This document shows positions 3,805-51,033 of a DNA stretch of 61,768 nucleotides, piece after piece. Under the pieces are notes generated by a model. It made no database searches and was not told the DNA's origin. It saw only the letters and a list, made by a program, of their open reading frames with translations. The translations under genes were made by a program, and so were the position numbers. The stretch is from a virus, in IMG/VR virus record IMGVR_UViG_3300023179_000112, positions 1 through 61,768 of that record; one strand, written 5' to 3'. Numbering within the stretch: the first letter of the stretch is position 1; every line of letters starts with the position of its first letter.

Positions 3805-5343
3805 TTATCCTAAATAGTAACCTCGTTTTTGCCCACGAAAGCCCCGAAAATAGCGTATATCGTCTGGTTCATCAGACGGTAGCGAAATAAACCCACCTTG
3901 CCTGAAACGCAGCAACGCTTGCGTCATTGTATCTACGTAGTCGTCATGCTCGCCAACAGGAAACGCAGCGACTTCTTCAATAACTTCCCTAGCCCACCGT
4001 GTGTCTGGTGCCCAAACTTTACCACTTGCAAATATATCAGCAACTGAATTAACACGAACGTGCTTATCGTTACCCCTTGAAGGGCTGAACTCCTGTATTG
4101 GCACCCCTACACGCCGCATTTCTTGTATAAGTGGTGCCCCTGCTGCTTTCTTTTCTATGATCACCGCATCAGGTTCATATTCCTTGTACATCTCTAAGGC
4201 GCGTTCTTTTAATACAGGAAAATTCATACGCGCTTTAAATGCATCAATTAATATTAAATTAGGTGCACCGCCATCTTCGTCGTTATACCAGATACCCCAT
4301 GTTGTGCACGCAGTATAATCTGAAGATGTTTTAGTTTCATGCGCCGTATCCCAAGATTGAATAATATATTCGCAGCGCGGTGGGTCTTCATGTTCCCACA
4401 CTCTCCACATATTACGTTGAATGACTGCTGCCGCATCACTTGTTGGCTGCTGCATATACTGCGCTTGCCAATAGCGCGGGTCCATTGCTGCTTTTTTAGC
4501 TTTTAATTGATCGAGGGGCCATTGTTCGGGCCATAATGATTTTTCATTATTTTCATTTTCGTTTAGTATTGCAGGTAATTCAACCAATTCCCACGGGTCT
4601 GATTCAGGATTTTTAATTTGATAATCAAGTAATTTACCCGTTAAGTCAATTAAACTCCAACGAGTCATAATAACTATGATCGCTCCTCCCGGCATTAACC
4701 GTTGTAGCGGTCCTGTTTGAAACCACGACCATGCTTGATCAAAAGTTAACCTTGAATTAGCTTTTATGTCTTGCTCAGAATGAGGATCGTCAATAACAAA
4801 CAAATCAGCACCACGCCCAGCCAAAGCCCCGCCCACACCAACAGCATAATATTGACCTCCGGCTCCGGTAGACCATTTTCCGGCGGCTTTTTGATCTTCT
4901 GCAAGGGCTGTTTTTGGAAAAATTTCTTGATATTCATTGGAATTTACTAAATTTTTAACACGCCGACCAAAATCTTCTGATAAAGAAGCCGTGTGCGTAC
5001 CCATAATAATTTTTTTATCTGGAAACTGCCCTAAAAACCACGCAGGAAACAAATAAGAACTGAATTCTGACTTACCCATACGCGGCGCAATATTAATAAT
5101 TACCCGTTTTTTGCGTCCTGCCACCACATCTTCAAATATTTTTGCTAGTTTTCTGTGGTGTGCGCCTTCTTTAAAACCCGGATATATGTGATGCGAAAAA
5201 GAAAGCATCGAAGAACGCGATTTTTTAAGAGATTTACGCCTATCATACTCGTCAAGAAGCGTCAAAACCTCCAGCTTTTCTGCTTTTGGTATCTGTGGCA
5301 GCATCTGCCGCAGCGCTTCAGCCTCGTAATCACTCAGATTCAA
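3805..5343 (-). CDS. terminase large subunit (TerL)
   Basis: The packaging motor: an ATPase domain followed by an RNase H-fold nuclease that cuts concatemeric DNA. Walker A is APRMGKSEF (Lys91-Ser92 from the chosen start) and Walker B is LFVIDDPHSEQ. The nuclease acidic residues are in QSWDTAHETKTSSDYTA, VIIEKKAAG and HDDYVDTMTQA. The start chosen is TTG at 5343, which has a GGAG seven bases upstream and gives 512 residues and a 14-base overlap with the small terminase. An ATG lies 14 codons further in. Longer in-frame starts would overlap the upstream gene by about 100 bases without an obvious SD. Confidence 0.93.
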   Translation of the reverse strand: MNLSDYEAEALRQMLPQIPKAEKLEVLTLLDEYDRRKSLKKSRSSMLSFSHHIYPGFKEGAHHRKLAKIFEDVVAGRKKRVIINIAPRMGKSEFSSYLFPAWFLGQFPDKKIIMGTHTASLSEDFGRRVKNLVNSNEYQEIFPKTALAEDQKAAGKWSTGAGGQYYAVGVGGALAGRGADLFVIDDPHSEQDIKANSRLTFDQAWSWFQTGPLQRLMPGGAIIVIMTRWSLIDLTGKLLDYQIKNPESDPWELVELPAILNENENNEKSLWPEQWPLDQLKAKKAAMDPRYWQAQYMQQPTSDAAAVIQRNMWRVWEHEDPPRCEYIIQSWDTAHETKTSSDYTACTTWGIWYNDEDGGAPNLILIDAFKARMNFPVLKERALEMYKEYEPDAVIIEKKAAGAPLIQEMRRVGVPIQEFSPSRGNDKHVRVNSVADIFASGKVWAPDTRWAREVIEEVAAFPVGEHDDYVDTMTQALLRFRQGGFISLPSDEPDDIRYFRGFRGQKRGYYLG

Positions 5344-5896
5344 CGACTTTCTCCGTTGCAGCAACCTCAATAGCGCCCATATATTTACCAAGTTTTGCCT
5401 TGATTTTGGATTCAATCTCCTCATCAGACATCTCAACCTTTTTAACTTCTGTTCGCTCAGTAAATAGCGCTACTTCAGTCACTTTACCCAACATCTCCAA
5501 CGCTTTTAATCTGTAACGCGGGTCTGGGTGTTTTGTATCTTCTAAAATTTTAGCTACAGCGTATCCGCGCATCTGCCGAGCTTGTTCAACAAACGCCCAA
5601 TCATACGCAGTTAACATGCTTACAAGATTACGCACCGCCCTTGGCGTTGTATTTGCCAATAATTTTTCTTTTATTTTTTCTGTTGAAGCACCCGCTGCCA
5701 TTGCAGCAAACGCAAGCTGTGCGCTTTTGTGTTGTGCATTTTCTTCAACTTCTTCATCAGAAACTGCACCTATCGATTCTAAAAAATCTGCCGTGGCTAC
5801 TTGAGCATCTAGCACTTCTTGCGCAGACGCTTTGTCAACGGGCGTATATTTAGGCGCGTCGTCGTATATGGATGGTTGTATCAAATGTTCAAACAT
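5330..5896 (-). CDS. putative terminase small subunit
   Basis: A 188-residue, helical, acidic protein immediately upstream of TerL and overlapping it by 14 bases. Small terminases bind the packaging site and regulate TerL; they vary greatly in sequence, so this call rests mostly on position, size and the helical middle (SAQLAFAAMAAGASTEKIKEK). The ATG at 5896 is chosen. An in-frame TTG at 5959 would add 21 residues rich in Cys and Gln that look untypical. The chosen start lacks a clear SD, which fits coupling to the small upstream ORF that ends at 5881. Confidence 0.65.
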   Translation of the reverse strand: MFEHLIQPSIYDDAPKYTPVDKASAQEVLDAQVATADFLESIGAVSDEEVEENAQHKSAQLAFAAMAAGASTEKIKEKLLANTTPRAVRNLVSMLTAYDWAFVEQARQMRGYAVAKILEDTKHPDPRYRLKALEMLGKVTEVALFTERTEVKKVEMSDEEIESKIKAKLGKYMGAIEVAATEKVVESE

Positions 5897-28351: not shown

Positions 28352-28535
28352 TATTGCTTTTCCGTGGGAGCATGTCCCACTAGGAGGCGGGTTTTTTGTC
28401 CCTACACTCAATCCACAACGTACTATAGAGAAAGCACATAGGGCAGCTATGACTGCCCGTGTGTTTCACTTCAAGAGCATACCCTGCATCATTAACGGGA
28501 AACTTGGCGTCTATTTTCAGCGGTTGCGGCGATGA
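28314..28535 (+). CDS. unknown small protein, convergent with giant virion gene
   Basis: A 73-residue protein, MQSESQSQKSRTDIAFPWE. Starts inside the primase-helicase gene, behind GAGAG. It contains PLGGGFFVPTLN and ends GKLGVYFQRLRR, a layout I associate with short regulatory proteins of phages, without known function. Its last 44 bases overlap the 3' end of the giant minus-strand gene, and no terminator separates the two. Confidence 0.65.
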   Translation: MQSESQSQKSRTDIAFPWEHVPLGGGFFVPTLNPQRTIEKAHRAAMTARVFHFKSIPCIINGKLGVYFQRLRR

Positions 28536-31500
28536 ACTTCTGCGCGTAGCCGATACGTGCTTGCCGTATGCGATCAAGTGTCTCGCGCTTTTGTTGGGGA
28601 GACATGTCCTTACGCTCACGCACATCACGCTCCATCTGTGCGTACTCCCCCATCTGTTGACGGAAGCTACCTGCCGAAGATGCCAGACCTAAAATCTGTC
28701 TGTTCTCTTTAACAAATTCTTGAACGTCACTAGCATCCCCGCGCCGTGTGAGTTCTTTGTAAGTGCGCTGCCGCTGCTCAATGTTGCTGACCACCTGATA
28801 GGCGTAGTTGATCAAGCCTTGAGCGTCACGGGGTTGGAACAAACCACCCACGATAGGCATATCGCTTGCTCGCATCTCAGGATCAGCTTTTCCTGGCTTC
28901 TCCAATACAGTGTTACCCATGCTTGAGATTGCAAGACCAAGAGGGCCAAAGTATCCACGAACGAGATAATCAAGCTGTATGGGGGACAAGCCGTACTCTT
29001 TGCCACCCACCGTAAAGCTAGTCAGTGAGCTAAGCATCTTGGCAACTTCTGACGTATTAGAGCGCATGCGCTGCGAGGGGATTAGCGCTTCTTCTCGTTC
29101 ACTCTCTATGCCGCGCCCTGAGAAGAACGAGTAGTTCGTAGCAACCTCAAGCGCTGGCTTAATAGCTTGTGGAATAAGCCCCGGCATCGTGTTACCCAAG
29201 ATACTCTTCAGCGCAGGGAACACTTGCCCTACTTCAGCTTTACCATCTGCCAGATGCACTATCATCTCAGGCAGTGCTTTGAACAACACGCCAACTTCAA
29301 ACGGGATGGGGATACGGAAAGGCTCACTGAACCCCGGTATATAGACAAAGAAGTTGTTGTACTTCTCATCTGGGTTAGCATTCTTATACGCCTCATCATC
29401 TTGCATCATGGCTGCGTACAGCACGGTCATACCTGCAAGCATCATGCCGCGTGTCCAGAACTTCTTGCGGACTTTTAACTGCTGATCAAACGGCATTTTG
29501 CCAGCAAACCCCGAACGGTACAGCACGTCCAGACCTTGAATCTGTGCGTTCAAGAACGGCACCATCATTGACAGCATCATCACAGACGGCGACAGCCCAC
29601 GACGGTTAAAGTTCATAGACTCAAGCGTAGCCAGCGTAGCTTCCATCTCTGACATACCTTGTTTGATAAAGCTGTTGTACAGCACAACGCGAGTCGATGC
29701 GTCGCCCTGTATTGCCAACGTGTCAAGCTTAGCCAGCTTAGTCGCCCACCCTTCTTTACCGCTAGCAATGTCACGAAGAATCAAACTTAAATCTTCAGAG
29801 GTGCCGGTAAAGACTTGCCCACCAAGCACACCACGCTCGCGTAGTTCTTTCTCGCTTTCACTCTTACCCTGCCGCATCTTGCGAAGTTCTTTAAGCGATG
29901 ACAGCACAGGGGTAAAGTTTCCTCCGGTTGTTAAAGCCGCAGACATTGAATCGCGGAACAACTGACGGAAGGCATACAACGGGTTGCGCGTAATGAACAA
30001 GCGCAACACTCTGGAAGGAATATTAAATAGCTTAACAACTTGAGGTATGGTGGCAGAAACCCCTTCAAGTCCTTTCACTAACAAGTCAGCAGGAACACCA
30101 AGCGTTTCTGTATCGATCACGGCGTACATAGGTTCACCGCGTTCTTTAAAGCGAATGACGTTAGCCCCCGCAGGACCGTCACCTTTCCCAATCTTAGCCA
30201 CAGGCATAGCGCTCGTACCAAGACTGCGTAACGTGTAGGCTACATTTTTTGTGGCTAGATTTCGCATAGCAAAATCAACGAACATGTTGGTGTTCTGCAC
30301 AGAGCTGGTAAAGAAGTCCAGAATCTTTGTGTTACCACCAACAAGTTGATCTAAGTACGGCTGATCTTTTAAGTTGCCAATACGAATGGGAGAGATCTCA
30401 CCACCAAGCATAAGCTGGACGGTGCCATTCTGTACCCGATAGAACGGAATGTAGTCGTTAGTGCGCAACAGCCTATCTTCATCAATTTTACTGATAGCGC
30501 CCGTTTGCACAGCAAACTTTACTAGGTTTCTGTTGTACTCGTTATAGAGCGTACGTGCCTTATCAAAAGCTTTTTTAATCTCTGGCTGAGACTCAACGTA
30601 ACGCTTTAGCCCTACTAAGTCAGACAGTTTGACGCTAGGATCAAAGTTCAGCGTATCAAGCCCAACACGTTCTGCACGAATAGCCGCCATCCAAGACGTA
30701 AACATTTTGTTAGCAGAGTCAACGCCCATGTCGGGCACTTCTTTAAGTGCTGCTGCAACATCTTTTAGAGATACTGTGCCTCCACTGCGCACAATGAACT
30801 CTTCACGTCCGTCTGCACGTTTCTTTTTCTCTAAGATTAACGCACCGTTGTTTACAACTTCAGCCGTAAAATTATTGCGTTGATCGTGCATTCGTAAATA
30901 AGACATCATTTGCGTAGCAGCAAGTGAGTCTTTCATTTGTGCAGCAATACGTTCAAGCGGATCAAAGCGATCAATATATTTGGTACGAAACGTCATGCCT
31001 GTGTTACCACCAAAGATTTTGTCAAACGTACTGGGCGGTGAGCCTGTAATTTGATTTATCACCGTAGCGTAGTTTGCAGGCATATTAGATGGGAACGCAT
31101 CTTTGCTTCTACGAAACACAACCTGTCCGTCAGCGTCACGATAAGCGCCGGGAGTACCGGATTTTATTACACGTCGTGAACGGCTTAGTAAGTAGTAAAT
31201 ATCAGCAGGCTTAAGAGCACTGTAACGCCCAAGCCCAAGCACATCACGCAACACTTGCCGCAATGCACCAATCATTTCTTGCACAAAACGTTTAACCGCA
31301 GCAACTGTAGATTCTGTAGCGCGAGCTTCTTCTACGTGTGCAATTAACTCACGTATAGCGGCGCGTTGTTGACCAATAATAGAAGTGCCAACACGTTGCA
31401 GATTAAGAATGGTGCCATATACTTCGTCGTGTACGCCCATTTCTTTAGCAAGACCAATAACGCCTCCCGGTTGAGAATCAACACGGAAAACAAGATCATC

Positions 31501-34500
31501 AAGCCCGCGCTCACCAAGAATAATATCAACGCCGTAATGACCAATTAGTTCGTGCGCAATAGTAGTTTCAAGATCAAGCATGTTGCCGTGGTTAACACCA
31601 ATAATAACAACGGTGCCATCCGGCATAACACCACCACGAACTTTTGCAGTTTCTTCATCCATACCTTGCTGCATGAGCGCACGGATAAAGTTTTTTGGCG
31701 CATCAAACAGTGTCTCAGCATAAACAAGCTTCACACCCTTTGGCAAATTAGCTTTGACCTGTTCAATTTTTTGCCGCGCTTCTTTAAGATCAACAACCGA
31801 GTCTGCAACTTCTTCAATACGAAAACTTGTAGGCCCAAGTGATGTTGGAAAAATAGCGGTGTTTTCAAACTCCTCAACATTTTGAGAAGTTGATGTAATA
31901 CCCGCTTGTGCATTACGTGCTGCCGCTGATTTAGCTCCGTTCTTAGCCCGTTTTTCTCTTTCAAGCGTATCAAGGTCTGGCGTTTTTTCCGTAGCCAAAC
32001 GCTGATCAGCGCCACCACCTTTTAAAGGTTTTAATCGCTGCGTTTTTAATTGTTCACCAACAACTTTAAGTTTTCCAGCAGGCGTTATTTCAGTTTGTTG
32101 CGTAGCATTTACGACGCGATAAATCTCAGGATCAGTTAATAAAACAACATCGCCTTGTAGCGTGGCAAGATCTTTACGTAGTTCTTTAATTTCGCCTTCT
32201 AACTTTGAGCGCCCTTTGGTGTCTTCTGATGGAGCGTTGCGTAACTCTTCACTACGCTTATCAATAAACAGTTGAATTTTTTCTTCAACCCCTTCATCAG
32301 ATACTTTATATTTTTTAGCAAGCCGCTCAACCGCAGCTTGATAGTTCTTTTCTATATTGCGCTGTTCTTTTAGCCACAAAGGTTCTTCTTTAATCAACAC
32401 AGTACGTTTGTCGGTATAGTCCTCTTGATAAATAGTTCCGCCACGAATTTCATTCAAACTTTCGTTTGACATATTATTAATATTTTTTTTCTCAATTGCT
32501 TCATTAACTCTTGTTTCAAGCGTAGATATTTGTGCTGTAATTTTTTCAATAGCTTTAGGATTAGACGTGTTTTCAAGTTGTTTATTAAGTTCTTTGATTT
32601 TTTTTCTGTACTCAATAATTGCTTTTTCATTAGCTTTTACAAAAGCATCTTGATTACGAATATCTTGAATTTGTTGTTCAACAGCCGCAATTTGTTGATT
32701 TATAATAGTAAGTCTGTCTGTTTTTGTTGTTCCAATTTTAACAAGCGTGTTATTTTTTTCAGCAATATTTCGTGCTTTTTTAAGCGCTTTTATGCGTATG
32801 TTTAATTCTGCTTCAGTAGATGTAACAGGCAATAAAACAGTAGCTTGTAGTTTAGGAGTCGTAACGCGGCGTGATGCAGGGATAATTTTGTAGCGATTAT
32901 TTATTGTGTAGAATGCTTCGTTAAGAGAAACAATACCGTCCATTGCCGCAAGGCGTGTTTCTTTTATTCGTTTGTTTCTATCAGCAGCGTCGGCTAATTC
33001 TTTACGCGCAGCTTCAAGTTGTGCAACGAGCGCACGTTGTTTATCTTGGGCAGACTGTTGATTTTTTTCTTCTCCAATATTTCTCTCAGCTTTAGGGTTT
33101 TGTTTAAGTTCAGCAAGCCGTTCTTTTAACTTGTCTAATTTTTGGCGTTCTTGTACAACACGTTCATCAAGTGCAGCTTTAAGACTTATCTCTTGTTCAG
33201 TTAATTCAACCGGACCTTTTTTTACAAACTCATTAAAAGCAATTTGTGCTTGGTGCATAATGGATAATGCATCACTATGGTCTGCTTCAAGCTTTTTAAG
33301 TTTTGTGTTTAGCAAAATAACAGATTCGGCGTATCCCTCTGCAACAACTCCTTCAGTGCCAGAAAGTTTGTTCTGGCTTTCTTCAAGCTGTTTTTTAGTA
33401 TTTTGAATTTGTTTTTCAAGTTGCTGCACTTGCTTTTCAAGAGGCGCAACATTGTTTTTAAGTTCATTAACACCTTTTACAAAATCTTCAATTTTAATGA
33501 CAATGCCGTTAAGCCCAGTGATAGAACGCCGAACTTCTGCAAGCGTTTGCAGCGTGATAGTTGTTTGATTTTGTACAGCTTCAGTAGCGTTGTTTATTAA
33601 AGACCGCAAACCTTCAACTTGCTGACCACGAAAAATATTTTTAATTCCATTAATAATACGACTTGAAGCTAAAAGAATTTCAGGAGTACTGCGAATAAAC
33701 ACACGAGGTTCTTCCTCAAACAATTCAAGTTGTTGTTCAAGCGATGTAACTTCTGTCTCGCGTTTGAGGAGTTCTTTAATCTTGGGTAACAGTTCAGCCT
33801 GTCCCAAGTTGTAGCGTATTGTTGGACCTGCGGGGGGTTTTGCCGCAGCAAGATCTTTTAGTTCAGTGCGCAGTTTTTCAATAGCTGCTTCACGTTCTTT
33901 AATTTGATCTGGCGTTATAAGTTTTGCGCGTTCTTCTGGCGTAATTGATTTTTGTAAAGCTTTTATACCGTCCGCAATATCCCTATCCAAAGCAGCGCGA
34001 GCTTCAAGAATTTCTTGCTGTTTGTCTTTTAGGTCTTGTCGGTTTTTATCGTACCAAGCACGGTTAGCCTGTTTTTGTTCTTTTGCGCTGCGAATAGGCA
34101 GTGAAGCAAAACGCGGCTTTTCAGCTTTTAAGTCAGGGTTATCTGTATCAAACGGCGTATCAAGACCGCTAACTATTCTGTTAACTTGTTCTAGTACGAC
34201 ATTTACTAATTCTTCAGACGGTTTGTCAATAGACTCAAATTGAGCAAGCGCTTGTTCAAGCTGGCTGTTAAGCCCCATGTTATTAGCGTTTAAACGAAGA
34301 CGCAGTGTTTCAAGTTCGTTTTTAATTGTTTGCTGTTTGGCTTCAAATGATGCAACTGCGCTCTGGTTGCGCAAGCGGTTTAATTCTTCAGATCCTGCAC
34401 GTAATGTAAATGCTTCTTCTTTTCTTGTACGCGGCCTTGCTTCAACTTTACTAAACTTGTCAGCAACTTCTTCAAGTTGGTCTTGAATAAGTGCAGTTGC

Positions 34501-37500
34501 CGTACGCGGATCAGCAAACGGACGCTCTTCAGTTTTACGTGTATCAAATGTAGGGGTAGTCAGTATGTCAACTACACGCGTTCTAGCAGGTGCTGCTAGT
34601 TGCTTTAAAAAAAAGTTAACGCGTTGACTAAACCGTTGCTGAAGCGTGTCTGTGTCTGCCCCAGGTCTTGTCATTGCGTTTGCAATAAGCTTAAGCTCGT
34701 TTTGTAAACGTGTAAGTTGTAAAAGATTTTTAGGATCTGCGACAACACGTTTCTCTGTTACCTGATCTAAGTTATCACGGATCTGTGCAAAGCTTAACGC
34801 CTGCATCCTGTTTGAGTACTCAGACAAAAGCTCTCGTGTTTGCTTTGTAATTTCGTCAACTTCTTGCTGGTTTAACCCTCGTTGCCCATTTGCATCACGA
34901 GCGTTTGCAATTTGTTGAAGCAGCGCATCAACGTAACGTTGTGTAATTTGTTCTGTCTTTTGTTCTCGTGTTTTAGCAAGCGGCAGTACAGATTCTGTTT
35001 CTTGAAGTTTGGCTAACTCTTTATCAATTTGACGAACAAGATCATCTCTGCCTTTACTCTTAGCCGCAGCCTTATATTTTTCCAACCTGTTAATACGTTT
35101 CTCAACGCCTAACGCAGTAGCAGGTCTTTTAAGGCGAGTAGCTGCATCAAGTGTGTAGTCAACAAAATCTTGAAACGCTTGATCTTTTAAAAACTTAGGA
35201 TCGTTAGTTGCAGCAAAGCGTTGCTCACGTAATTCTTCTAACTGTTTGTTAATATTAGCAAGCTGTTCTTCATCACGCGTTTCACGCGCATATTGCTTTT
35301 GTTTTTCAAGCGCGTTAATTCTGTCTTCAATATCAGAACGCGGGGCTGTAACTTTTGTTGGTGTTATAACGGGTTTTTCAGTTTTTTGAATTGCAGACGC
35401 CGCCAGCGCCCCCGCAATTCCTTCTTCTGTTTCGGGTTTTACTTCCGGTATTTCAAGATACTGCCGTAGTGTCTGAAGTTGTGCTTCACGACGTAAAGCA
35501 AGTAATCCTTGTTCGTTAAGTTGGCTTGAACCGTCAGGTTTTAAAAGATCTACGTCGTTAGTAAGAAGTGTTTTTTGTTGCGCTTCAAGGTTATTTATTC
35601 TGTCTTGAACAATAGAACGAATTGATACGTTTCCGGCAAGTTCGTTAACGTTGCGCCCGCCAACTATTCTAGAAAACGGCGTAACAGGTAGCCCCAATGC
35701 TTTAGCAATTGTTTTAGTGATGCGCCCTAACCCAAGGTTATATCCAAGGTCGGCTTCAATATCTGTTTCGTCTAATTGCTGTGCATCAGGCAACCCCAAC
35801 GCTTTTACCACCATACGGGGGTTTTCTAGTCTACGCGTTACAGTGTCAACTCCTGCTTCAAACCCTTCTAACTCAAGCTGTTGTTGACGTTGTGTGCCTG
35901 CATCTTTTCCTTGTTCTTTTAATTGCTTAATGTACTGAGCATCAGCTTCTTCAAGCTCATTAACGTATATTGTTGGAAAACCAAGCAACGTTGTATCTTG
36001 TTTTTGTTCAATTGCATACTCTTCAATTGAACTGTACAACGCTTTTAAAGCTGGGTTTTTCTTAAAATCGTTTTGAGCTTTTTTTATTTCAGCGTCAGTT
36101 AATGACAATCTAAGTTGCTCACGACGCCTTTCCTCTTCAATTTTAGCTTGTTCTTTTTCACGTTTATCAAATTCAGCTTGGCGTCTAGCAATCTCGTCTG
36201 CACGAAGTTTAGCTGTAAGTTCTTCGGTTTCTTTATCTTTAGCTTCTTGAGCAGCTTTTTGCCGTGCTTCTTCTTCAAGACGCTGATCATTTAAAGCGTT
36301 AGTATATGCGTGAAATGTTGGGTATTTTTTCTTTATTTTTCCGCCCATAACAGGATCGTTCCAGTCTTGAAGTGCACGACTAAGCAAAGCTTGCGGCATA
36401 CGCGCCATACGGTCGTAAGCTTCAGCTTGCTGGGCTGCAATATCTACTTCAGAACGTGGTTGATACAACCCCGGTACGATATTACCAAACTCGTCAACAA
36501 CAGGCCGACCTTTTGCTTCTTCTTGTTCTTTACGTTCGCGCATAATGTCAGCAAAAGTGCGCTGTGCTTGTGGAACGTTTTCTTTAATATCAGCCGCAAT
36601 TTCACGCATTCGCGCTTTAATTTCATCTATTCTTGCTTTAGCATCAAATTCTTGTTCTGGTGTTAATGCTTTACCAGATATAGCTTGTTGAATTTGAATT
36701 ATTTCATCGCGCAACGTAACGCGTTCTTGATTCAGAGCTTGAGCATACTCAGGTGTTTTCTTTAGTGCGGCTTCTTTCTCAGCGGCTTCTTGCTGCTGTT
36801 TTACTTTCTCTTGCTGAATCTTTTCACGTTCAAAACTACGCTCTTGATACTTTGCTGCTGCACCAAATGCAGGAGCAGCCAGAAATGTTTGATACGCTGC
36901 TTCACCATATTCTTTAAACGCATCGTCTGAGGTAAGAGACAGCCCCGCTTGCAGTCGTTCAAGCATAGACTGCGTAACTTCAGTAGGGACTTCAATAAGA
37001 GCAGCTTTTGCTGCACCTGTTGTAAGTGTGCGTTTTAAACTTGCATCTGCAACGGCTTTACCTGCGACAGTATTCAAAGCTTTTTCAGGTATACCAATTA
37101 ACTTACCTACTAACTGTTTGCCAAGAACAAACGCATCAGCAGCAGTCTCTAATCCAGCTTGTACGGCAGCGGCAGCGGCAGCATCGGCAGCATTAATAGT
37201 TTTACCTTCAGCCGCTTGACGTGAAAGGTTTGAACCAAACTCCCGCAAATACGAAGGCGCAAACTTACCAAGTGCTCCACCAACTGTAGCGCCAACCCCT
37301 ACACCAACCGGCCCAAACGGCGCTCCTGCCATCGCTCCTAGCCGTGCACCAGTGAACGCCCCACCCAAAGACACGCCAAGTTGCGGTATTTGCCCTGCTA
37401 TAGCTGACGGAGATTGGCTTAATAATTCTTTACCTGCACCAAACAGCCCTTCTTCAGCGTAACGCTTGCTTAATTGATCAAGCCCAACCTCGTTGGCATA

Positions 37501-37752
37501 ACGGGAAGCTATACTGCGTTCACGAAGCGCTGCATCCTTTGCAGCTTGTTCGGCATCAAACAGACCAGCAACACCAGCGCGTATTCCTGAAACAAGGGAT
37601 TCAGCGCCCTTACCAATAGCACCTGTTATGCCACCTGACTTTGGGTAAAGATCGGGAAACTTTTCCCGCAGAAATATTTCTGCTTCTTCTTTTGGCGTTG
37701 AGTCAGCAAACTTCGCCTGTCTTCCGTCAGGTAAGGTAAGAAAATAAGCCAT
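28492..37752 (-). CDS. giant virion protein with HExxxH zincin-like motif
   Basis: A 3086-residue protein, about 15% of the window. Residues about 110-175 are Gly- and Ala-rich and hydrophobic (FTGARLGAMAGAPFGPVGVG). From about 300 to 1990 it is charged, Gln/Glu/Lys-rich coiled coil. TTIAHELIGHYGVD (His2067, Glu2068, His2072) is an HExxxH motif like peptidase domains of large phage polyvalent proteins. Segments near 2590 (ITRNPLYAFRQLFRDSM) and later PFLNAQIQGLD recall the large-polyvalent-associated domain LPD38. Such proteins are carried in the capsid and ejected into the host. The start has AAGGTAGCGC upstream. Domain names are by recall. Confidence 0.8.
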   Translation of the reverse strand: MAYFLTLPDGRQAKFADSTPKEEAEIFLREKFPDLYPKSGGITGAIGKGAESLVSGIRAGVAGLFDAEQAAKDAALRERSIASRYANEVGLDQLSKRYAEEGLFGAGKELLSQSPSAIAGQIPQLGVSLGGAFTGARLGAMAGAPFGPVGVGVGATVGGALGKFAPSYLREFGSNLSRQAAEGKTINAADAAAAAAVQAGLETAADAFVLGKQLVGKLIGIPEKALNTVAGKAVADASLKRTLTTGAAKAALIEVPTEVTQSMLERLQAGLSLTSDDAFKEYGEAAYQTFLAAPAFGAAAKYQERSFEREKIQQEKVKQQQEAAEKEAALKKTPEYAQALNQERVTLRDEIIQIQQAISGKALTPEQEFDAKARIDEIKARMREIAADIKENVPQAQRTFADIMRERKEQEEAKGRPVVDEFGNIVPGLYQPRSEVDIAAQQAEAYDRMARMPQALLSRALQDWNDPVMGGKIKKKYPTFHAYTNALNDQRLEEEARQKAAQEAKDKETEELTAKLRADEIARRQAEFDKREKEQAKIEEERRREQLRLSLTDAEIKKAQNDFKKNPALKALYSSIEEYAIEQKQDTTLLGFPTIYVNELEEADAQYIKQLKEQGKDAGTQRQQQLELEGFEAGVDTVTRRLENPRMVVKALGLPDAQQLDETDIEADLGYNLGLGRITKTIAKALGLPVTPFSRIVGGRNVNELAGNVSIRSIVQDRINNLEAQQKTLLTNDVDLLKPDGSSQLNEQGLLALRREAQLQTLRQYLEIPEVKPETEEGIAGALAASAIQKTEKPVITPTKVTAPRSDIEDRINALEKQKQYARETRDEEQLANINKQLEELREQRFAATNDPKFLKDQAFQDFVDYTLDAATRLKRPATALGVEKRINRLEKYKAAAKSKGRDDLVRQIDKELAKLQETESVLPLAKTREQKTEQITQRYVDALLQQIANARDANGQRGLNQQEVDEITKQTRELLSEYSNRMQALSFAQIRDNLDQVTEKRVVADPKNLLQLTRLQNELKLIANAMTRPGADTDTLQQRFSQRVNFFLKQLAAPARTRVVDILTTPTFDTRKTEERPFADPRTATALIQDQLEEVADKFSKVEARPRTRKEEAFTLRAGSEELNRLRNQSAVASFEAKQQTIKNELETLRLRLNANNMGLNSQLEQALAQFESIDKPSEELVNVVLEQVNRIVSGLDTPFDTDNPDLKAEKPRFASLPIRSAKEQKQANRAWYDKNRQDLKDKQQEILEARAALDRDIADGIKALQKSITPEERAKLITPDQIKEREAAIEKLRTELKDLAAAKPPAGPTIRYNLGQAELLPKIKELLKRETEVTSLEQQLELFEEEPRVFIRSTPEILLASSRIINGIKNIFRGQQVEGLRSLINNATEAVQNQTTITLQTLAEVRRSITGLNGIVIKIEDFVKGVNELKNNVAPLEKQVQQLEKQIQNTKKQLEESQNKLSGTEGVVAEGYAESVILLNTKLKKLEADHSDALSIMHQAQIAFNEFVKKGPVELTEQEISLKAALDERVVQERQKLDKLKERLAELKQNPKAERNIGEEKNQQSAQDKQRALVAQLEAARKELADAADRNKRIKETRLAAMDGIVSLNEAFYTINNRYKIIPASRRVTTPKLQATVLLPVTSTEAELNIRIKALKKARNIAEKNNTLVKIGTTKTDRLTIINQQIAAVEQQIQDIRNQDAFVKANEKAIIEYRKKIKELNKQLENTSNPKAIEKITAQISTLETRVNEAIEKKNINNMSNESLNEIRGGTIYQEDYTDKRTVLIKEEPLWLKEQRNIEKNYQAAVERLAKKYKVSDEGVEEKIQLFIDKRSEELRNAPSEDTKGRSKLEGEIKELRKDLATLQGDVVLLTDPEIYRVVNATQQTEITPAGKLKVVGEQLKTQRLKPLKGGGADQRLATEKTPDLDTLEREKRAKNGAKSAAARNAQAGITSTSQNVEEFENTAIFPTSLGPTSFRIEEVADSVVDLKEARQKIEQVKANLPKGVKLVYAETLFDAPKNFIRALMQQGMDEETAKVRGGVMPDGTVVIIGVNHGNMLDLETTIAHELIGHYGVDIILGERGLDDLVFRVDSQPGGVIGLAKEMGVHDEVYGTILNLQRVGTSIIGQQRAAIRELIAHVEEARATESTVAAVKRFVQEMIGALRQVLRDVLGLGRYSALKPADIYYLLSRSRRVIKSGTPGAYRDADGQVVFRRSKDAFPSNMPANYATVINQITGSPPSTFDKIFGGNTGMTFRTKYIDRFDPLERIAAQMKDSLAATQMMSYLRMHDQRNNFTAEVVNNGALILEKKKRADGREEFIVRSGGTVSLKDVAAALKEVPDMGVDSANKMFTSWMAAIRAERVGLDTLNFDPSVKLSDLVGLKRYVESQPEIKKAFDKARTLYNEYNRNLVKFAVQTGAISKIDEDRLLRTNDYIPFYRVQNGTVQLMLGGEISPIRIGNLKDQPYLDQLVGGNTKILDFFTSSVQNTNMFVDFAMRNLATKNVAYTLRSLGTSAMPVAKIGKGDGPAGANVIRFKERGEPMYAVIDTETLGVPADLLVKGLEGVSATIPQVVKLFNIPSRVLRLFITRNPLYAFRQLFRDSMSAALTTGGNFTPVLSSLKELRKMRQGKSESEKELRERGVLGGQVFTGTSEDLSLILRDIASGKEGWATKLAKLDTLAIQGDASTRVVLYNSFIKQGMSEMEATLATLESMNFNRRGLSPSVMMLSMMVPFLNAQIQGLDVLYRSGFAGKMPFDQQLKVRKKFWTRGMMLAGMTVLYAAMMQDDEAYKNANPDEKYNNFFVYIPGFSEPFRIPIPFEVGVLFKALPEMIVHLADGKAEVGQVFPALKSILGNTMPGLIPQAIKPALEVATNYSFFSGRGIESEREEALIPSQRMRSNTSEVAKMLSSLTSFTVGGKEYGLSPIQLDYLVRGYFGPLGLAISSMGNTVLEKPGKADPEMRASDMPIVGGLFQPRDAQGLINYAYQVVSNIEQRQRTYKELTRRGDASDVQEFVKENRQILGLASSAGSFRQQMGEYAQMERDVRERKDMSPQQKRETLDRIRQARIGYAQKFIAATAENRRQVSR

Positions 37753-48953: not shown

Positions 48954-49796
48954 TTACTGCAACCCCATCGCTTGACGGATTTTAGTTGCCGAGATTGAAT
49001 GAGTAGCATCATCAAAAGTTTCTTGCTCAATCTTGTAGCCCACATCGCGGCCATAGGTGATGTTCACGATATTAGGTACTAACTGTATCTCATATTGCCC
49101 CTGAAAGAGCGGATCAAGGTCTCGTCTAATAAATTCCTTAACCTGTTCGGCAGCAAAGGGATTAGACCCATTCCAGCCTTGACAATCACGGATCTGGATC
49201 ACTACCTGACCTGTCTTGGCAATCGCACGCTCAAACAATTTTCTATGCCCCGGATGCCAAGGTTGCCAGCGACCAAGCATCTGCACTGTTTCTTTTTTCC
49301 AATCAAACCGTGGGCGACGGCGGTCTTGCAAAATGTGGTCGGCTATAAAGTCAGACCATTTATCAGCGTCTTTCTCGGTAATACGAAAGTCGTAAACATC
49401 AGGCGGCACAAAAGCCTTGTTGGTATCTTCGTACCGACCAGCATCAATGGTATCCATCCAGATAACCCAGTCGGCCTTAAAGTTATGACGCATCTCAGGA
49501 AGCGGTGCCACAAAGTCGCAAATGACATAATCAGCATTTGATGAGAGTGCAAACTCAGCCATCCTTAGAGACTGCCGAATCCGTCCTTCACGGCTAAAAT
49601 CCCAGTCGTTGTATCTCTTGCGGACTTCATCGGCATTGAACCACTTGACGGTTGGATGCCAATAAGTTGGCACAGCTTCGCACTGTGCAAGCTTTTCTAA
49701 TGGGATATCTGTGCTGGCCTCCAAGCGCTTTTTAAGGGCTTCGGCCATAAAGGTTTTGCCTGCTCCGGGCAGTCCCATAATAAGGATTTTTTTCAT
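48954..49796 (-). CDS. APS kinase-like plus nucleotidyltransferase fusion
   Basis: A 280-residue fusion. The N-terminal part is an adenylylsulfate-kinase-like P-loop enzyme: GLPGAGKT (8-15), FNADEVRKRYNDWDFS and GRIRQSLRM resemble CysC. The C-terminal part is a nucleotidyltransferase: GRWQPWHPGH (HPGH, 181-184) and ISATKIR (268-274) are the HxGH and ISxTxxR motifs of the cytidylyl/adenylyl-transferase superfamily. The pair could make APS and PAPS, the sulfate donor, for the sulfotransferase just upstream (ATGA overlap). Whether the second domain acts on sulfate or on another substrate (for example NMN) cannot be told from the sequence. Confidence 0.78.
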   Translation of the reverse strand: MKKILIMGLPGAGKTFMAEALKKRLEASTDIPLEKLAQCEAVPTYWHPTVKWFNADEVRKRYNDWDFSREGRIRQSLRMAEFALSSNADYVICDFVAPLPEMRHNFKADWVIWMDTIDAGRYEDTNKAFVPPDVYDFRITEKDADKWSDFIADHILQDRRRPRFDWKKETVQMLGRWQPWHPGHRKLFERAIAKTGQVVIQIRDCQGWNGSNPFAAEQVKEFIRRDLDPLFQGQYEIQLVPNIVNITYGRDVGYKIEQETFDDATHSISATKIRQAMGLQ

Positions 49797-50614
49797 ACAA
49801 CCACTTTCATTCTGTATTGCTCCGTAAACTTTGGTTTTGCCGGACGCCAAAATTCTTTGCCAGAATATTTATCCCAAACCGATTTAGGTAAAATTGAACG
49901 ACGTTCTTCCCAAGTTACTTTACGCCGTACTGTGTGCAGACTTTTCATGTTTAACGCACGATCAAACACTTCATTCTCGTATTCTACGTTATCAAAGTCA
50001 TGGTTAAAGTAAGGTTTGTTAATAAACCCATAAATCTTACGCATGGTGTCTTCAGGATCTCTACACAAACCTTCATACTCCATCAAAAAGATCATGTCTG
50101 AATTGAGCAACAGACCCTCCTCTAAGAAGTAGTATGGCTTGACAACTTGACCTTCTTTTTTAACATCCATCAACGCGTCACATCTGGTTGTCACGGTCTG
50201 CCGCGCTTCATCGTCAGTAAGTGTTGCGCCGTACAGACTGTTTTTTACGGTAATCCGCTCAAAAGAATCCAAAATCCACGGCAAATCTCGAACGCAACAG
50301 ATAATTTTTGTTTGCGGATAAAGATCTTTGAGTAGGGCTGTTTTAGCAGTCCAACCACGACTTGTATCAAATACAACCGAATTGTTGACAGCCTTGTAAT
50401 ACGCCTCAAACGTATCGCGCAAAATCTGTTTGCGACGATCTTCATCAATGAGATGATTGTTCTCACTGCCCGTTATGACGTTAATTGTCGAGGTTACTAA
50501 ACCTTGCATCGGGGAGGAGATGTCCGCATAAAACTCTGGGTTTTGACGCAAAATGCCTGAAAGCAGCGTTGAACCAGAGCGCGGTAGGCCAGAGATGAAT
50601 AAAAACTCTTTCAC
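49793..50614 (-). CDS. sulfotransferase
   Basis: A 273-residue protein opening with FISGLPRSGSTLL, where PRSGST (11-16) is the 5'-phosphosulfate-binding loop of sulfotransferases. KIICCVRDLPWILDSFER supplies the CVRD segment that contacts the 3'-phosphate in this family. It should move sulfate from PAPS to a hydroxyl or amine on protein or sugar. The start is a GTG at 50614 overlapping the previous stop (GTGA); a TTG four codons earlier is possible. It is co-transcribed with the APS-kinase fusion. Confidence 0.85.
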   Translation of the reverse strand: MKEFLFISGLPRSGSTLLSGILRQNPEFYADISSPMQGLVTSTINVITGSENNHLIDEDRRKQILRDTFEAYYKAVNNSVVFDTSRGWTAKTALLKDLYPQTKIICCVRDLPWILDSFERITVKNSLYGATLTDDEARQTVTTRCDALMDVKKEGQVVKPYYFLEEGLLLNSDMIFLMEYEGLCRDPEDTMRKIYGFINKPYFNHDFDNVEYENEVFDRALNMKSLHTVRRKVTWEERRSILPKSVWDKYSGKEFWRPAKPKFTEQYRMKVVV

Positions 50615-51033
50615 ATCGGAACCCAAGAAACAGTTTGCTCATCCCACTTGTAGCGCACGTTGCCACCGTTCATGACTGCATCCTCCGGGAGGGGAATTGG
50701 AGGAACCCACTCTCCACTGTCTTCATCCCACAACCACGAAGGATATGGGCGACGAGCCTCATACTCGGCTTGTTTAAGTTGAAAATAATAAGATTCCGAT
50801 AAAACCTGAAGAACACCTGCAATAGACGTATCAGCATCGTCATCACAAGTACCATAGTACAAAGGTGCTCGAAGATAAGTGCCGTCTGGCGCAAGCTCCA
50901 CAGGCCATGTGGACCTGTTCGCCCACTCAAATTTAAAACCTTTGACTACGGGCATTGACGGACCGGTGCGTTGCGGCTCTTGAGTGCAAGGAATTTTTGT
51001 GATGACATCAACTTCAGTTACGCAGATGTACAT
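50611..51033 (-). CDS. unknown protein between fibre and sulfotransferase genes
   Basis: A 140-residue protein, MYICVTEVDVITKIPCTQE. The C-terminal half has Trp-rich strands (YPSWLWDEDSGEWVPP, YKWDEQTVSWVPM), a pattern I recall from proteins next to tail fibres in cyanophage genomes. It might be a fibre accessory or chaperone. Has an AGGATAAACC leader. Confidence 0.65.
   Translation of the reverse strand: MYICVTEVDVITKIPCTQEPQRTGPSMPVVKGFKFEWANRSTWPVELAPDGTYLRAPLYYGTCDDDADTSIAGVLQVLSESYYFQLKQAEYEARRPYPSWLWDEDSGEWVPPIPLPEDAVMNGGNVRYKWDEQTVSWVPM

What the first reader, a model, noticed from the sequence alone, without database searches (positions are those of the whole stretch)
48954..50614. 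Virus-encoded sulfation module: sulfotransferase plus APS-kinase/nucleotidyltransferase
A sulfotransferase with PRSGST is translationally coupled (ATGA overlap) to a fusion with an APS-kinase-like P-loop domain and an HPGH/ISATKIR nucleotidyltransferase domain. Together they could make PAPS and use it, a complete sulfate-transfer route. They lie in the late virion operon between tail fibres and lysis genes, which suggests that the target is a virion component or host surface glycan. An alternative is that the second domain acts on NMN or another nucleotide and is unrelated to sulfate.
Basis: partly seen in the sequence, partly recalled or inferred. Interest (0 to 1): 0.82.

Follow-up and report, generated by a model that had tools for sequence, protein, structure and literature searches.

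The report
Phage sulfotransferase with its donor-making kinase
A freshwater phage carries, as two overlapping genes beside its tail and lysis genes, an enzyme that attaches sulfate groups and a small fused enzyme that probably makes the activated sulfate it needs; the pair recurs in many viruses, and the fused enzyme has relatives in the abundant SAR11 bacteria that lack a recognised sulfate-activating enzyme.

Summary
On the minus strand a Sulfotransfer_3 enzyme (49793-50614, 273 aa, GTG start) overlaps by ATGA a 280-aa fusion (48954-49796). Its N-terminal half is a divergent APS kinase by profile and fold. Its C-terminal half is a shortened HxGH adenylyltransferase of the NMN-adenylyltransferase type, not an ATP sulfurylase.

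The pair is not chance: 78 of 79 close sulfotransferase relatives have the kinase directly 3', mostly overlapping; in 24 a kinase-only gene replaces the fusion. A kinase-only relative in Methylocystis sits next to cysND. In SAR11 the kinase and adenylyltransferase are two linked genes in a sulfur-metabolism island, in genomes without detectable ATP sulfurylase or CysD.

Best reading: a PAPS-making and PAPS-using sulfation module. The adenylyltransferase may make the kinase's substrate (APS or another adenylyl compound), unproven. The target is unknown; sulfotransferase-glycosyltransferase fusions and heptose genes near K in other viruses point to a surface or virion glycan.

Against a strict link: some viruses, including two complete Stenotrophomonas phages, carry the fusion without a recognisable sulfotransferase. 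New variant of a known kind.

The parts
49793..50614 (-). Sulfotransferase gene (S), 273 aa, GTG start
   Evidence: Pfam Sulfotransfer_3 1.9e-16, over cut-off; phrog_27463 7e-49
50567..50590 (-). 5'-phosphosulfate-binding loop GLPRSGST (residues 9-16)
   Evidence: G9 P11 R12 S13 G14 T16 invariant in 34 homologs; function from the known family
50264..50290 (-). Candidate 3'-phosphate-binding motif R109...S117
   Evidence: R109 and S117 invariant in 34 homologs down to about 25% identity; spacing as in known sulfotransferases (own knowledge)
48954..49796 (-). Kinase-adenylyltransferase fusion gene (K), 280 aa, ATG start
   Evidence: phrog_10255 'kinase' 2e-45
49323..49796 (-). APS-kinase-like P-loop domain of K (about residues 1-158)
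   Evidence: profile A1 vs PDB: APS kinase 2yvu 7e-14, PAPSS1 8e-12; Foldseek CysC 4rfv TMt 0.74
48954..49304 (-). HxGH adenylyltransferase domain of K (about residues 165-280 plus stop)
   Evidence: profile A4 vs PDB: NMNAT 2qjt 3e-9, 1f9a 1e-8; AlphaFold2 pLDDT 88, TMq 0.71 to NMNAT 1ej2
49752..49775 (-). Walker A GLPGAGKT (residues 8-15)
   Evidence: sequence; near invariant
49245..49256 (-). HPGH nucleotidyltransferase motif (residues 181-184)
   Evidence: H, G, H invariant in 20 homologs
48975..48995 (-). ISATKIR motif (residues 268-274)
   Evidence: I, S, A, T, I, R invariant in 20 homologs
49793..49796 (-). ATGA overlap: stop of S with start of K
   Evidence: overlap conserved in most of 78 homologous pairs
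50611..51033 (-). Upstream gene, 140 aa (phrog_7759, unknown function), stop overlaps S start (GTGA)
   Evidence: same family directly upstream of S in 76 of 79 loci

Best explanation
The two genes form a sulfation module. S is a PAPS-dependent sulfotransferase. The N-terminal domain of K is an APS-kinase-family enzyme that adds the 3'-phosphate, giving PAPS for S; co-translation keeps donor supply and use together during late infection. The C-terminal adenylyltransferase domain most likely makes the kinase's substrate: AMP is transferred from ATP to a small acceptor, with sulfate giving APS as the leading candidate, so that K would be a small analogue of PAPS synthase. Viruses with a kinase-only partner would draw APS from the host. 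The acceptor of S is most likely a glycan on the virion (tail) or the host surface. Shown by computation: identities of S and the kinase, linkage, swapping of the kinase partner, fusion and linkage of kinase with adenylyltransferase, intact motifs. Inferred: PAPS as donor, kinase activity on APS, APS formation by the adenylyltransferase, and the target.
For: S: Pfam over cut-off; PAPS-loop residues and the R109/S117 pair invariant in 34 homologs. Kinase: PDB profile matches are led by APS kinases, 7e-14 and 9e-12; kinase-only variants match apsK at 1e-15; Foldseek finds mostly APS kinases, and in viruses a phage protein named APS kinase. Linkage: 78 of 79 S relatives have the kinase directly 3', overlapping; 45 of 51 close K relatives with at least 4.5 kb upstream have an S-family ORF there. 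The same S is followed by the fusion (49) or by a diverged kinase-only gene (24), and those 24 records hold no adenylyltransferase, so the kinase is the constant partner. A Methylocystis kinase-only gene lies 37 b from cysN-cysD. Kinase and adenylyltransferase occur together: fused in 74 of 74 viral loci, linked separate genes in SAR11. 23 SAR11 genomes: no ATP sulfurylase, no CysD, 17 with Sulfotransfer_3. Glycan link: S fused to a glycosyltransferase-like region, heptose genes and glycosyltransferases near K.
Against: The adenylyltransferase domain shows no ATP-sulfurylase similarity by profile or fold. The kinase falls far below the NCBIfam apsK equivalog cut-off, and profile matches stop before the C-terminal third, where canonical APS kinases have their lid. 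K occurs without a recognisable sulfotransferase: two complete Stenotrophomonas phages, contigs of 126, 88 and 45 kb, and about 15 of 49 loci in a wider sample; some lie beside folate/7-deazaguanine-type genes. T4 polynucleotide kinase is the top Foldseek hit by E-value, although at TM 0.27. SAR11 has AprBA, which could make APS from sulfite (PMC5069961). SAR11 genomes here are partly incomplete. Many linked loci share ancestry, so they are not independent counts.
Confidence: 0.62

Rival explanations
1. K and S handle a PAPS-like donor carrying a group other than sulfate: the adenylyltransferase makes NMP-X, the APS-kinase-like domain adds the 3'-phosphate, and the sulfotransferase-fold enzyme moves X, as in Campylobacter methyl-phosphoramidate synthesis, where a kinase acts on cytidine diphosphoramidate.
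For: A kinase of this pathway is named cytidine diphosphoramidate kinase (Taylor and Raushel 2018, seen as a cited title in PMC6429109); its relation to CysC is from own knowledge. The adenylyltransferase here is not an ATP sulfurylase; the kinase is a distinct subfamily.
Against: No glutamine kinase or amidotransferase partner was seen in the loci read; S is an ordinary Sulfotransfer_3 member; kinase-only partners (24 loci) and the cysND neighbour in Methylocystis fit APS better.
Confidence: 0.13
2. K is an NAD or other cofactor enzyme, a NadR-like kinase plus NMN adenylyltransferase in reverse order, helping the phage with NAD supply; its position next to S is coincidental or indirect.
For: Adenylyltransferase profile matches only NMNAT-type enzymes well; K-like genes in Stenotrophomonas phages lie beside a NADAR gene and in nucleotide-metabolism regions; some K genes sit beside folate/7-deazaguanine-type genes.
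Against: The kinase matches APS kinases, not nucleoside kinases. About 25 residues of the NMNAT fold are missing between two matched segments, where the nicotinamide pocket lies (own knowledge). S is followed by kinase-only genes in 24 records without the adenylyltransferase.
Confidence: 0.14
3. S and K travel together only as cargo in a gene-exchange hot spot near tail and lysis genes, with no joint biochemistry.
For: K and S both occur without the other near by; the region is rich in accessory genes.
Against: Overlapping start and stop conserved across lineages, partner swapping that keeps a kinase behind S, and pairing of K with several diverged sulfotransferases in other virus types.
Confidence: 0.08

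Closest known systems
Bifunctional PAPS synthase (animal PAPSS; SAT/APS kinase of Moumouvirus and Cotonvirus with neighbouring sulfotransferase, PMC10117803)
   Same: APS-kinase domain fused to an HxGH-fold adenylyltransferase, with a sulfotransferase near by in a glycan gene cluster of the giant viruses; in animals the kinase is also N-terminal (own knowledge)
   Different: K is 280 aa instead of 620-655 aa; its second domain is a shortened NMNAT-like domain with no ATP-sulfurylase similarity; host is a bacterium
APS kinase CysC (PF01583, TIGR00455)
   Same: P-loop, NADxVR (for DGDxxR), FS-x3-R region and domain fold; Pfam cut-off met
   Different: Q replaces the usual N of the DRxxN region, C-terminal third not matched, far below the equivalog cut-off
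Archaeal-type NMN adenylyltransferase NadM (TIGR01527, PRK01153)
   Same: GRxQPxHxGH and ISATKIR motifs, fold (TMq 0.71 to 1ej2)
   Different: below both curated cut-offs; about 25 residues shorter between two matched segments; own YGRxVGY motif
Phage Sulfotransfer_3 proteins (Synechococcus phages S-SKS1, S-SRM01; OM43 phages, PMC10580990)
   Same: Same domain at about 29-31% identity over nearly full length for the Synechococcus phages
   Different: No K-like gene next to them in S-SKS1 or S-SRM01; function called unclear in PMC10580990

Membership tests
PAPS-dependent sulfotransferase (PF13469) | Profile score over curated cut-off | tested here: met
   61.4 bits, cut-off 27
PAPS-dependent sulfotransferase (PF13469) | 5'-phosphosulfate loop and 3'-phosphate-binding R...S pair | tested here: met
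   GxPRSGST and R109/S117 invariant or nearly so in 34 homologs
PAPS-dependent sulfotransferase (PF13469) | Transfers sulfate from PAPS to an acceptor | not testable with these tools
   needs an assay
APS kinase | Best profile and fold matches are APS kinases; Pfam cut-off met | tested here: met
   26.8 bits, cut-off 21.1
APS kinase | NCBIfam apsK equivalog cut-off | tested here: not met
   19.1 bits for K, 57.4 for a kinase-only variant, cut-off 138.7
APS kinase | Canonical C-terminal third including lid region | tested here: not met
   Pfam and PDB matches end near position 85-93 of the domain
APS kinase | Phosphorylates APS at 3'-OH | not testable with these tools
   needs an assay
ATP sulfurylase | PF01747 or CysD/PAPS_reduct match in the window | tested here: not met
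   no PF01747, no PF01507 in the window
ATP sulfurylase | Similarity of the adenylyltransferase domain by profile or fold | tested here: not met
   none at E 10, none among the 50 best folds
NMN adenylyltransferase (NadM type) | HxGH and ISxTxIR motifs with NMNAT fold | tested here: met
NMN adenylyltransferase (NadM type) | NCBIfam equivalog/subfamily cut-off | tested here: not met
   29.1 of 127 and 26 of 181.2 bits
NMN adenylyltransferase (NadM type) | Full-length region carrying the nicotinamide site | tested here: inconclusive
   about 25 residues missing between matched segments of 1f9a; the site's location is own knowledge
Bifunctional PAPS synthase | APS kinase plus ATP sulfurylase in one chain | tested here: not met
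   kinase yes; second domain is not an ATP sulfurylase by homology
Cytidine diphosphoramidate pathway | Closer kinase similarity to the Campylobacter enzyme than to CysC | not tested
   reference sequence not fetched

The most novel reading that the evidence does not exclude
The adenylyltransferase domain is a previously unrecognised minimal ATP sulfurylase of NMNAT ancestry, so K is the smallest known PAPS synthase. Viruses carry it with sulfotransferases to sulfate glycans, and SAR11 bacteria, thought unable to activate sulfate, use the same two proteins as separate genes to make PAPS.
Probability: 0.27. Interest if true: 0.85.

Novelty: new variant of a known kind. Interest (0 to 1): 0.6.

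Why it matters
Phage sulfotransferases are known, but their role is described as unclear (PMC10580990). Finding the donor-making kinase as a conserved, translationally coupled partner gives that question a direct experimental handle and suggests phage-driven sulfation of virion or host glycans, which could affect adsorption, superinfection and recognition. The fusion also points to an untested way of activating sulfate, or of making a PAPS-like donor, in SAR11 bacteria, which carry an annotated cysC and cysQ but are reported to lack the rest of assimilatory sulfate reduction (PMC5069961).

Tried and rejected
ATP sulfurylase identity for the second domain: rejected on profile and fold; a GRD resemblance to the ATP-sulfurylase GRDHAG motif was considered and dropped, because SAR11 and other homologs have GRG, GRQ or GRK there. 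Polynucleotide kinase identity: T4 PNK ranks first by Foldseek E-value but superposes poorly (TM 0.27, rmsd 17), and profiles favour APS kinases. CysD/CysH elsewhere in the window: none. Calling the divergent ORFs with an RTGS-like loop near K in L303, L331 and L334 sulfotransferases: no Pfam support, not claimed; fam107 in L040/L058/L067 matches Sulfotransfer_3 only at E 0.04. Nucleotide search of the phage collection: no match. Literature searches for a phage sulfotransferase plus APS kinase pair found only the giant-virus case. PMC5938747 is not held.

Full report
Observation. The window is one whole virus record of 61768 bases. The claimed genes are on the minus strand: S, 49793-50614, 273 aa, GTG start; K, 48954-49796, 280 aa, ATG start. 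S overlaps the gene upstream (GTGA) and K overlaps S (ATGA). Upstream are a small conserved gene (50611-51033) and fibre-like ORFs; downstream are spanin-like, holin-like and lysozyme genes. The terminase is 52% identical to that of Pelagibacter phage HTVC027P over 85% of its length; the host is unknown.

S. Pfam Sulfotransfer_3 matches at 1.9e-16, over cut-off. In an alignment of 34 diverse homologs the loop GxPRSGST, R109 and S117 are invariant or nearly so, and Y180, D218 and H227 are invariant. R109 and S117 have the spacing of the R...S pair that binds the 3'-phosphate of PAPS in known sulfotransferases (own knowledge). S is therefore very probably a PAPS-dependent sulfotransferase.

K, kinase domain. 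Pfam APS_kinase is over cut-off. A profile of 43 K relatives finds APS kinases first in the PDB: 2yvu 7e-14, PAPSS1 8e-12. A profile of kinase-only variants gives the same answer, 9e-12, and apsK matches all 14 of them, best 3e-16, though below the equivalog cut-off. The AlphaFold2 model (mean pLDDT 78) matches mostly APS kinases; M. tuberculosis CysC gives TMt 0.74 at 3.8 A, while T4 PNK ranks first by E-value but superposes poorly. Among viral models the best hit is a Ralstonia phage protein named APS kinase. The matches end before the C-terminal third, so this is a divergent subfamily.

K, adenylyltransferase domain. A profile of 20 relatives matches only NMN-adenylyltransferase-type proteins at low E-values (2qjt 3e-9, 1f9a 1e-8); ATP sulfurylase is absent up to E 10. 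The model (pLDDT 88) is an HxGH fold closest to NMNAT and PPAT. Between two matched segments of 1f9a the family lacks about 25 residues, in the region of the nicotinamide site (own knowledge). Catalytic motifs are intact. The acceptor is thus unknown, and NMN is not assured.

Linkage in viruses. 78 of 79 S loci have the kinase directly 3', nearly all overlapping. In 49 the partner is the full fusion, in 24 a kinase-only gene, in 5 it is cut by a contig end. The 24 kinase-only records contain no adenylyltransferase, whereas 5 fusion controls do; most of these records are fragments. So the same S is kept with a kinase while the adenylyltransferase is optional. Among 51 close K loci with at least 4.5 kb upstream, 45 have an S-family ORF, often a diverged one at 22-41% identity. 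Several of those are fused to a C-terminal region that looks like a GT-B glycosyltransferase (reading of the sequence; not matched by Pfam). Near K lie GT25 and GT32-like genes, a PfkB kinase, a nucleotidyltransferase and an epimerase resembling the ADP-heptose pathway. This suggests a glycan as target.

Counter-evidence. In a wider sample 27 of 49 loci with long upstream flank have an S match, 34 counting weaker look-alikes and glycosyltransferase remnants. Contigs of 126, 88 and 45 kb, and the two complete Stenotrophomonas phages Bhz60 and DLP6, have no Sulfotransfer_3. In Bhz60 the gene lies beside NADAR and methyltransferase genes. Some K genes are near GTP cyclohydrolase and PTPS genes. 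K therefore need not always serve a phage-encoded sulfotransferase.

Cellular relatives. The kinase-only profile finds mainly Pelagibacteraceae. There the kinase (about 136 aa) and adenylyltransferase (about 124-135 aa) are separate genes, adjacent or 2.4-5 kb apart, in a region with a GCV_T-type gene that looks like dmdA (reading of the sequence), EgtB-like and EgtD-like genes, a Rieske oxygenase and SBP56. Of 23 such SAR11 genomes none has ATP sulfurylase (PF01747) or CysD, while 17 have Sulfotransfer_3; the genomes are partly incomplete. PMC5069961 tabulates a cysC and cysQ in most SAR11 strains surveyed, cysD and cysN in only one or two, and names AprBA as a possible source of APS. Two other alphaproteobacterial genomes with the fusion (G107, G125) also lack CysD, PAPS reductase and ATP sulfurylase; G001 has CysD-like and CysH-like genes. 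Two genomes with a kinase-only gene (Methylosinus, Methylocystis) do have CysD, and in Methylocystis the kinase gene lies 37 b from cysN-cysD. This pattern fits APS as kinase substrate and the adenylyltransferase as an alternative source of it, but the genomes are few and related.

Mechanism and likelihood. Most likely (0.62): K's kinase makes PAPS and S uses it; the adenylyltransferase prepares the kinase's substrate. That the substrate is APS made from sulfate is the most novel reading (0.27). Rivals are a PAPS-like donor with another group, as in Campylobacter phosphoramidate synthesis (0.13), a cofactor enzyme (0.14), and mere cargo (0.08).

Novelty. A viral PAPS synthase next to a sulfotransferase is proposed in Moumouvirus and Cotonvirus glycan clusters (PMC10117803), and Sulfotransfer_3 genes are known in phages with unclear function (PMC10580990). 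The phage pair with a small kinase-adenylyltransferase fusion was not found in the open library searched. I file it as a new variant of a known kind.

Noticed in passing
L182:7992-8773 and other Pelagibacteraceae loci (L168-L236): SAR11 genomes carry the kinase and adenylyltransferase as two linked genes in an organosulfur island, with no ATP sulfurylase or CysD detected in 23 genomes but Sulfotransfer_3 in 17.
   Followed up: partly
L167:7833-11007: In a Methylocystis MAG a kinase-only relative lies 37 b from cysN (fused to DUF2061) and cysD, on the opposite strand.
   Followed up: partly
L050:232-2001, L033:1026-2795, L073:172-1950 and similar: Sulfotransferase fused to a roughly 330-aa C-terminal region that looks like a GT-B glycosyltransferase (about 590 aa in all), a few genes upstream of K in other viral contigs.
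   Followed up: partly
L054:1626-4435, L074:4898-8227, L046, L030, L051: K beside genes resembling ADP-heptose synthesis (PfkB kinase, HldE-like nucleotidyltransferase, epimerase, cupin).
   Followed up: partly
L308, L319, L323, L331: K beside GTP cyclohydrolase I, PTPS/QueD-like, radical-SAM QueE-like and a second CTP_transf_like gene, with no sulfotransferase detected.
   Followed up: no
window 3805-5436 (-): Terminase is 52% identical to that of Pelagibacter phage HTVC027P, so the virus belongs near the roughly 60-kb HTVC023P/HTVC027P group.
   Followed up: no
window 28492-37752 (-): A single ORF of 3086 aa between the replication genes and the structural genes; not examined.
   Followed up: no
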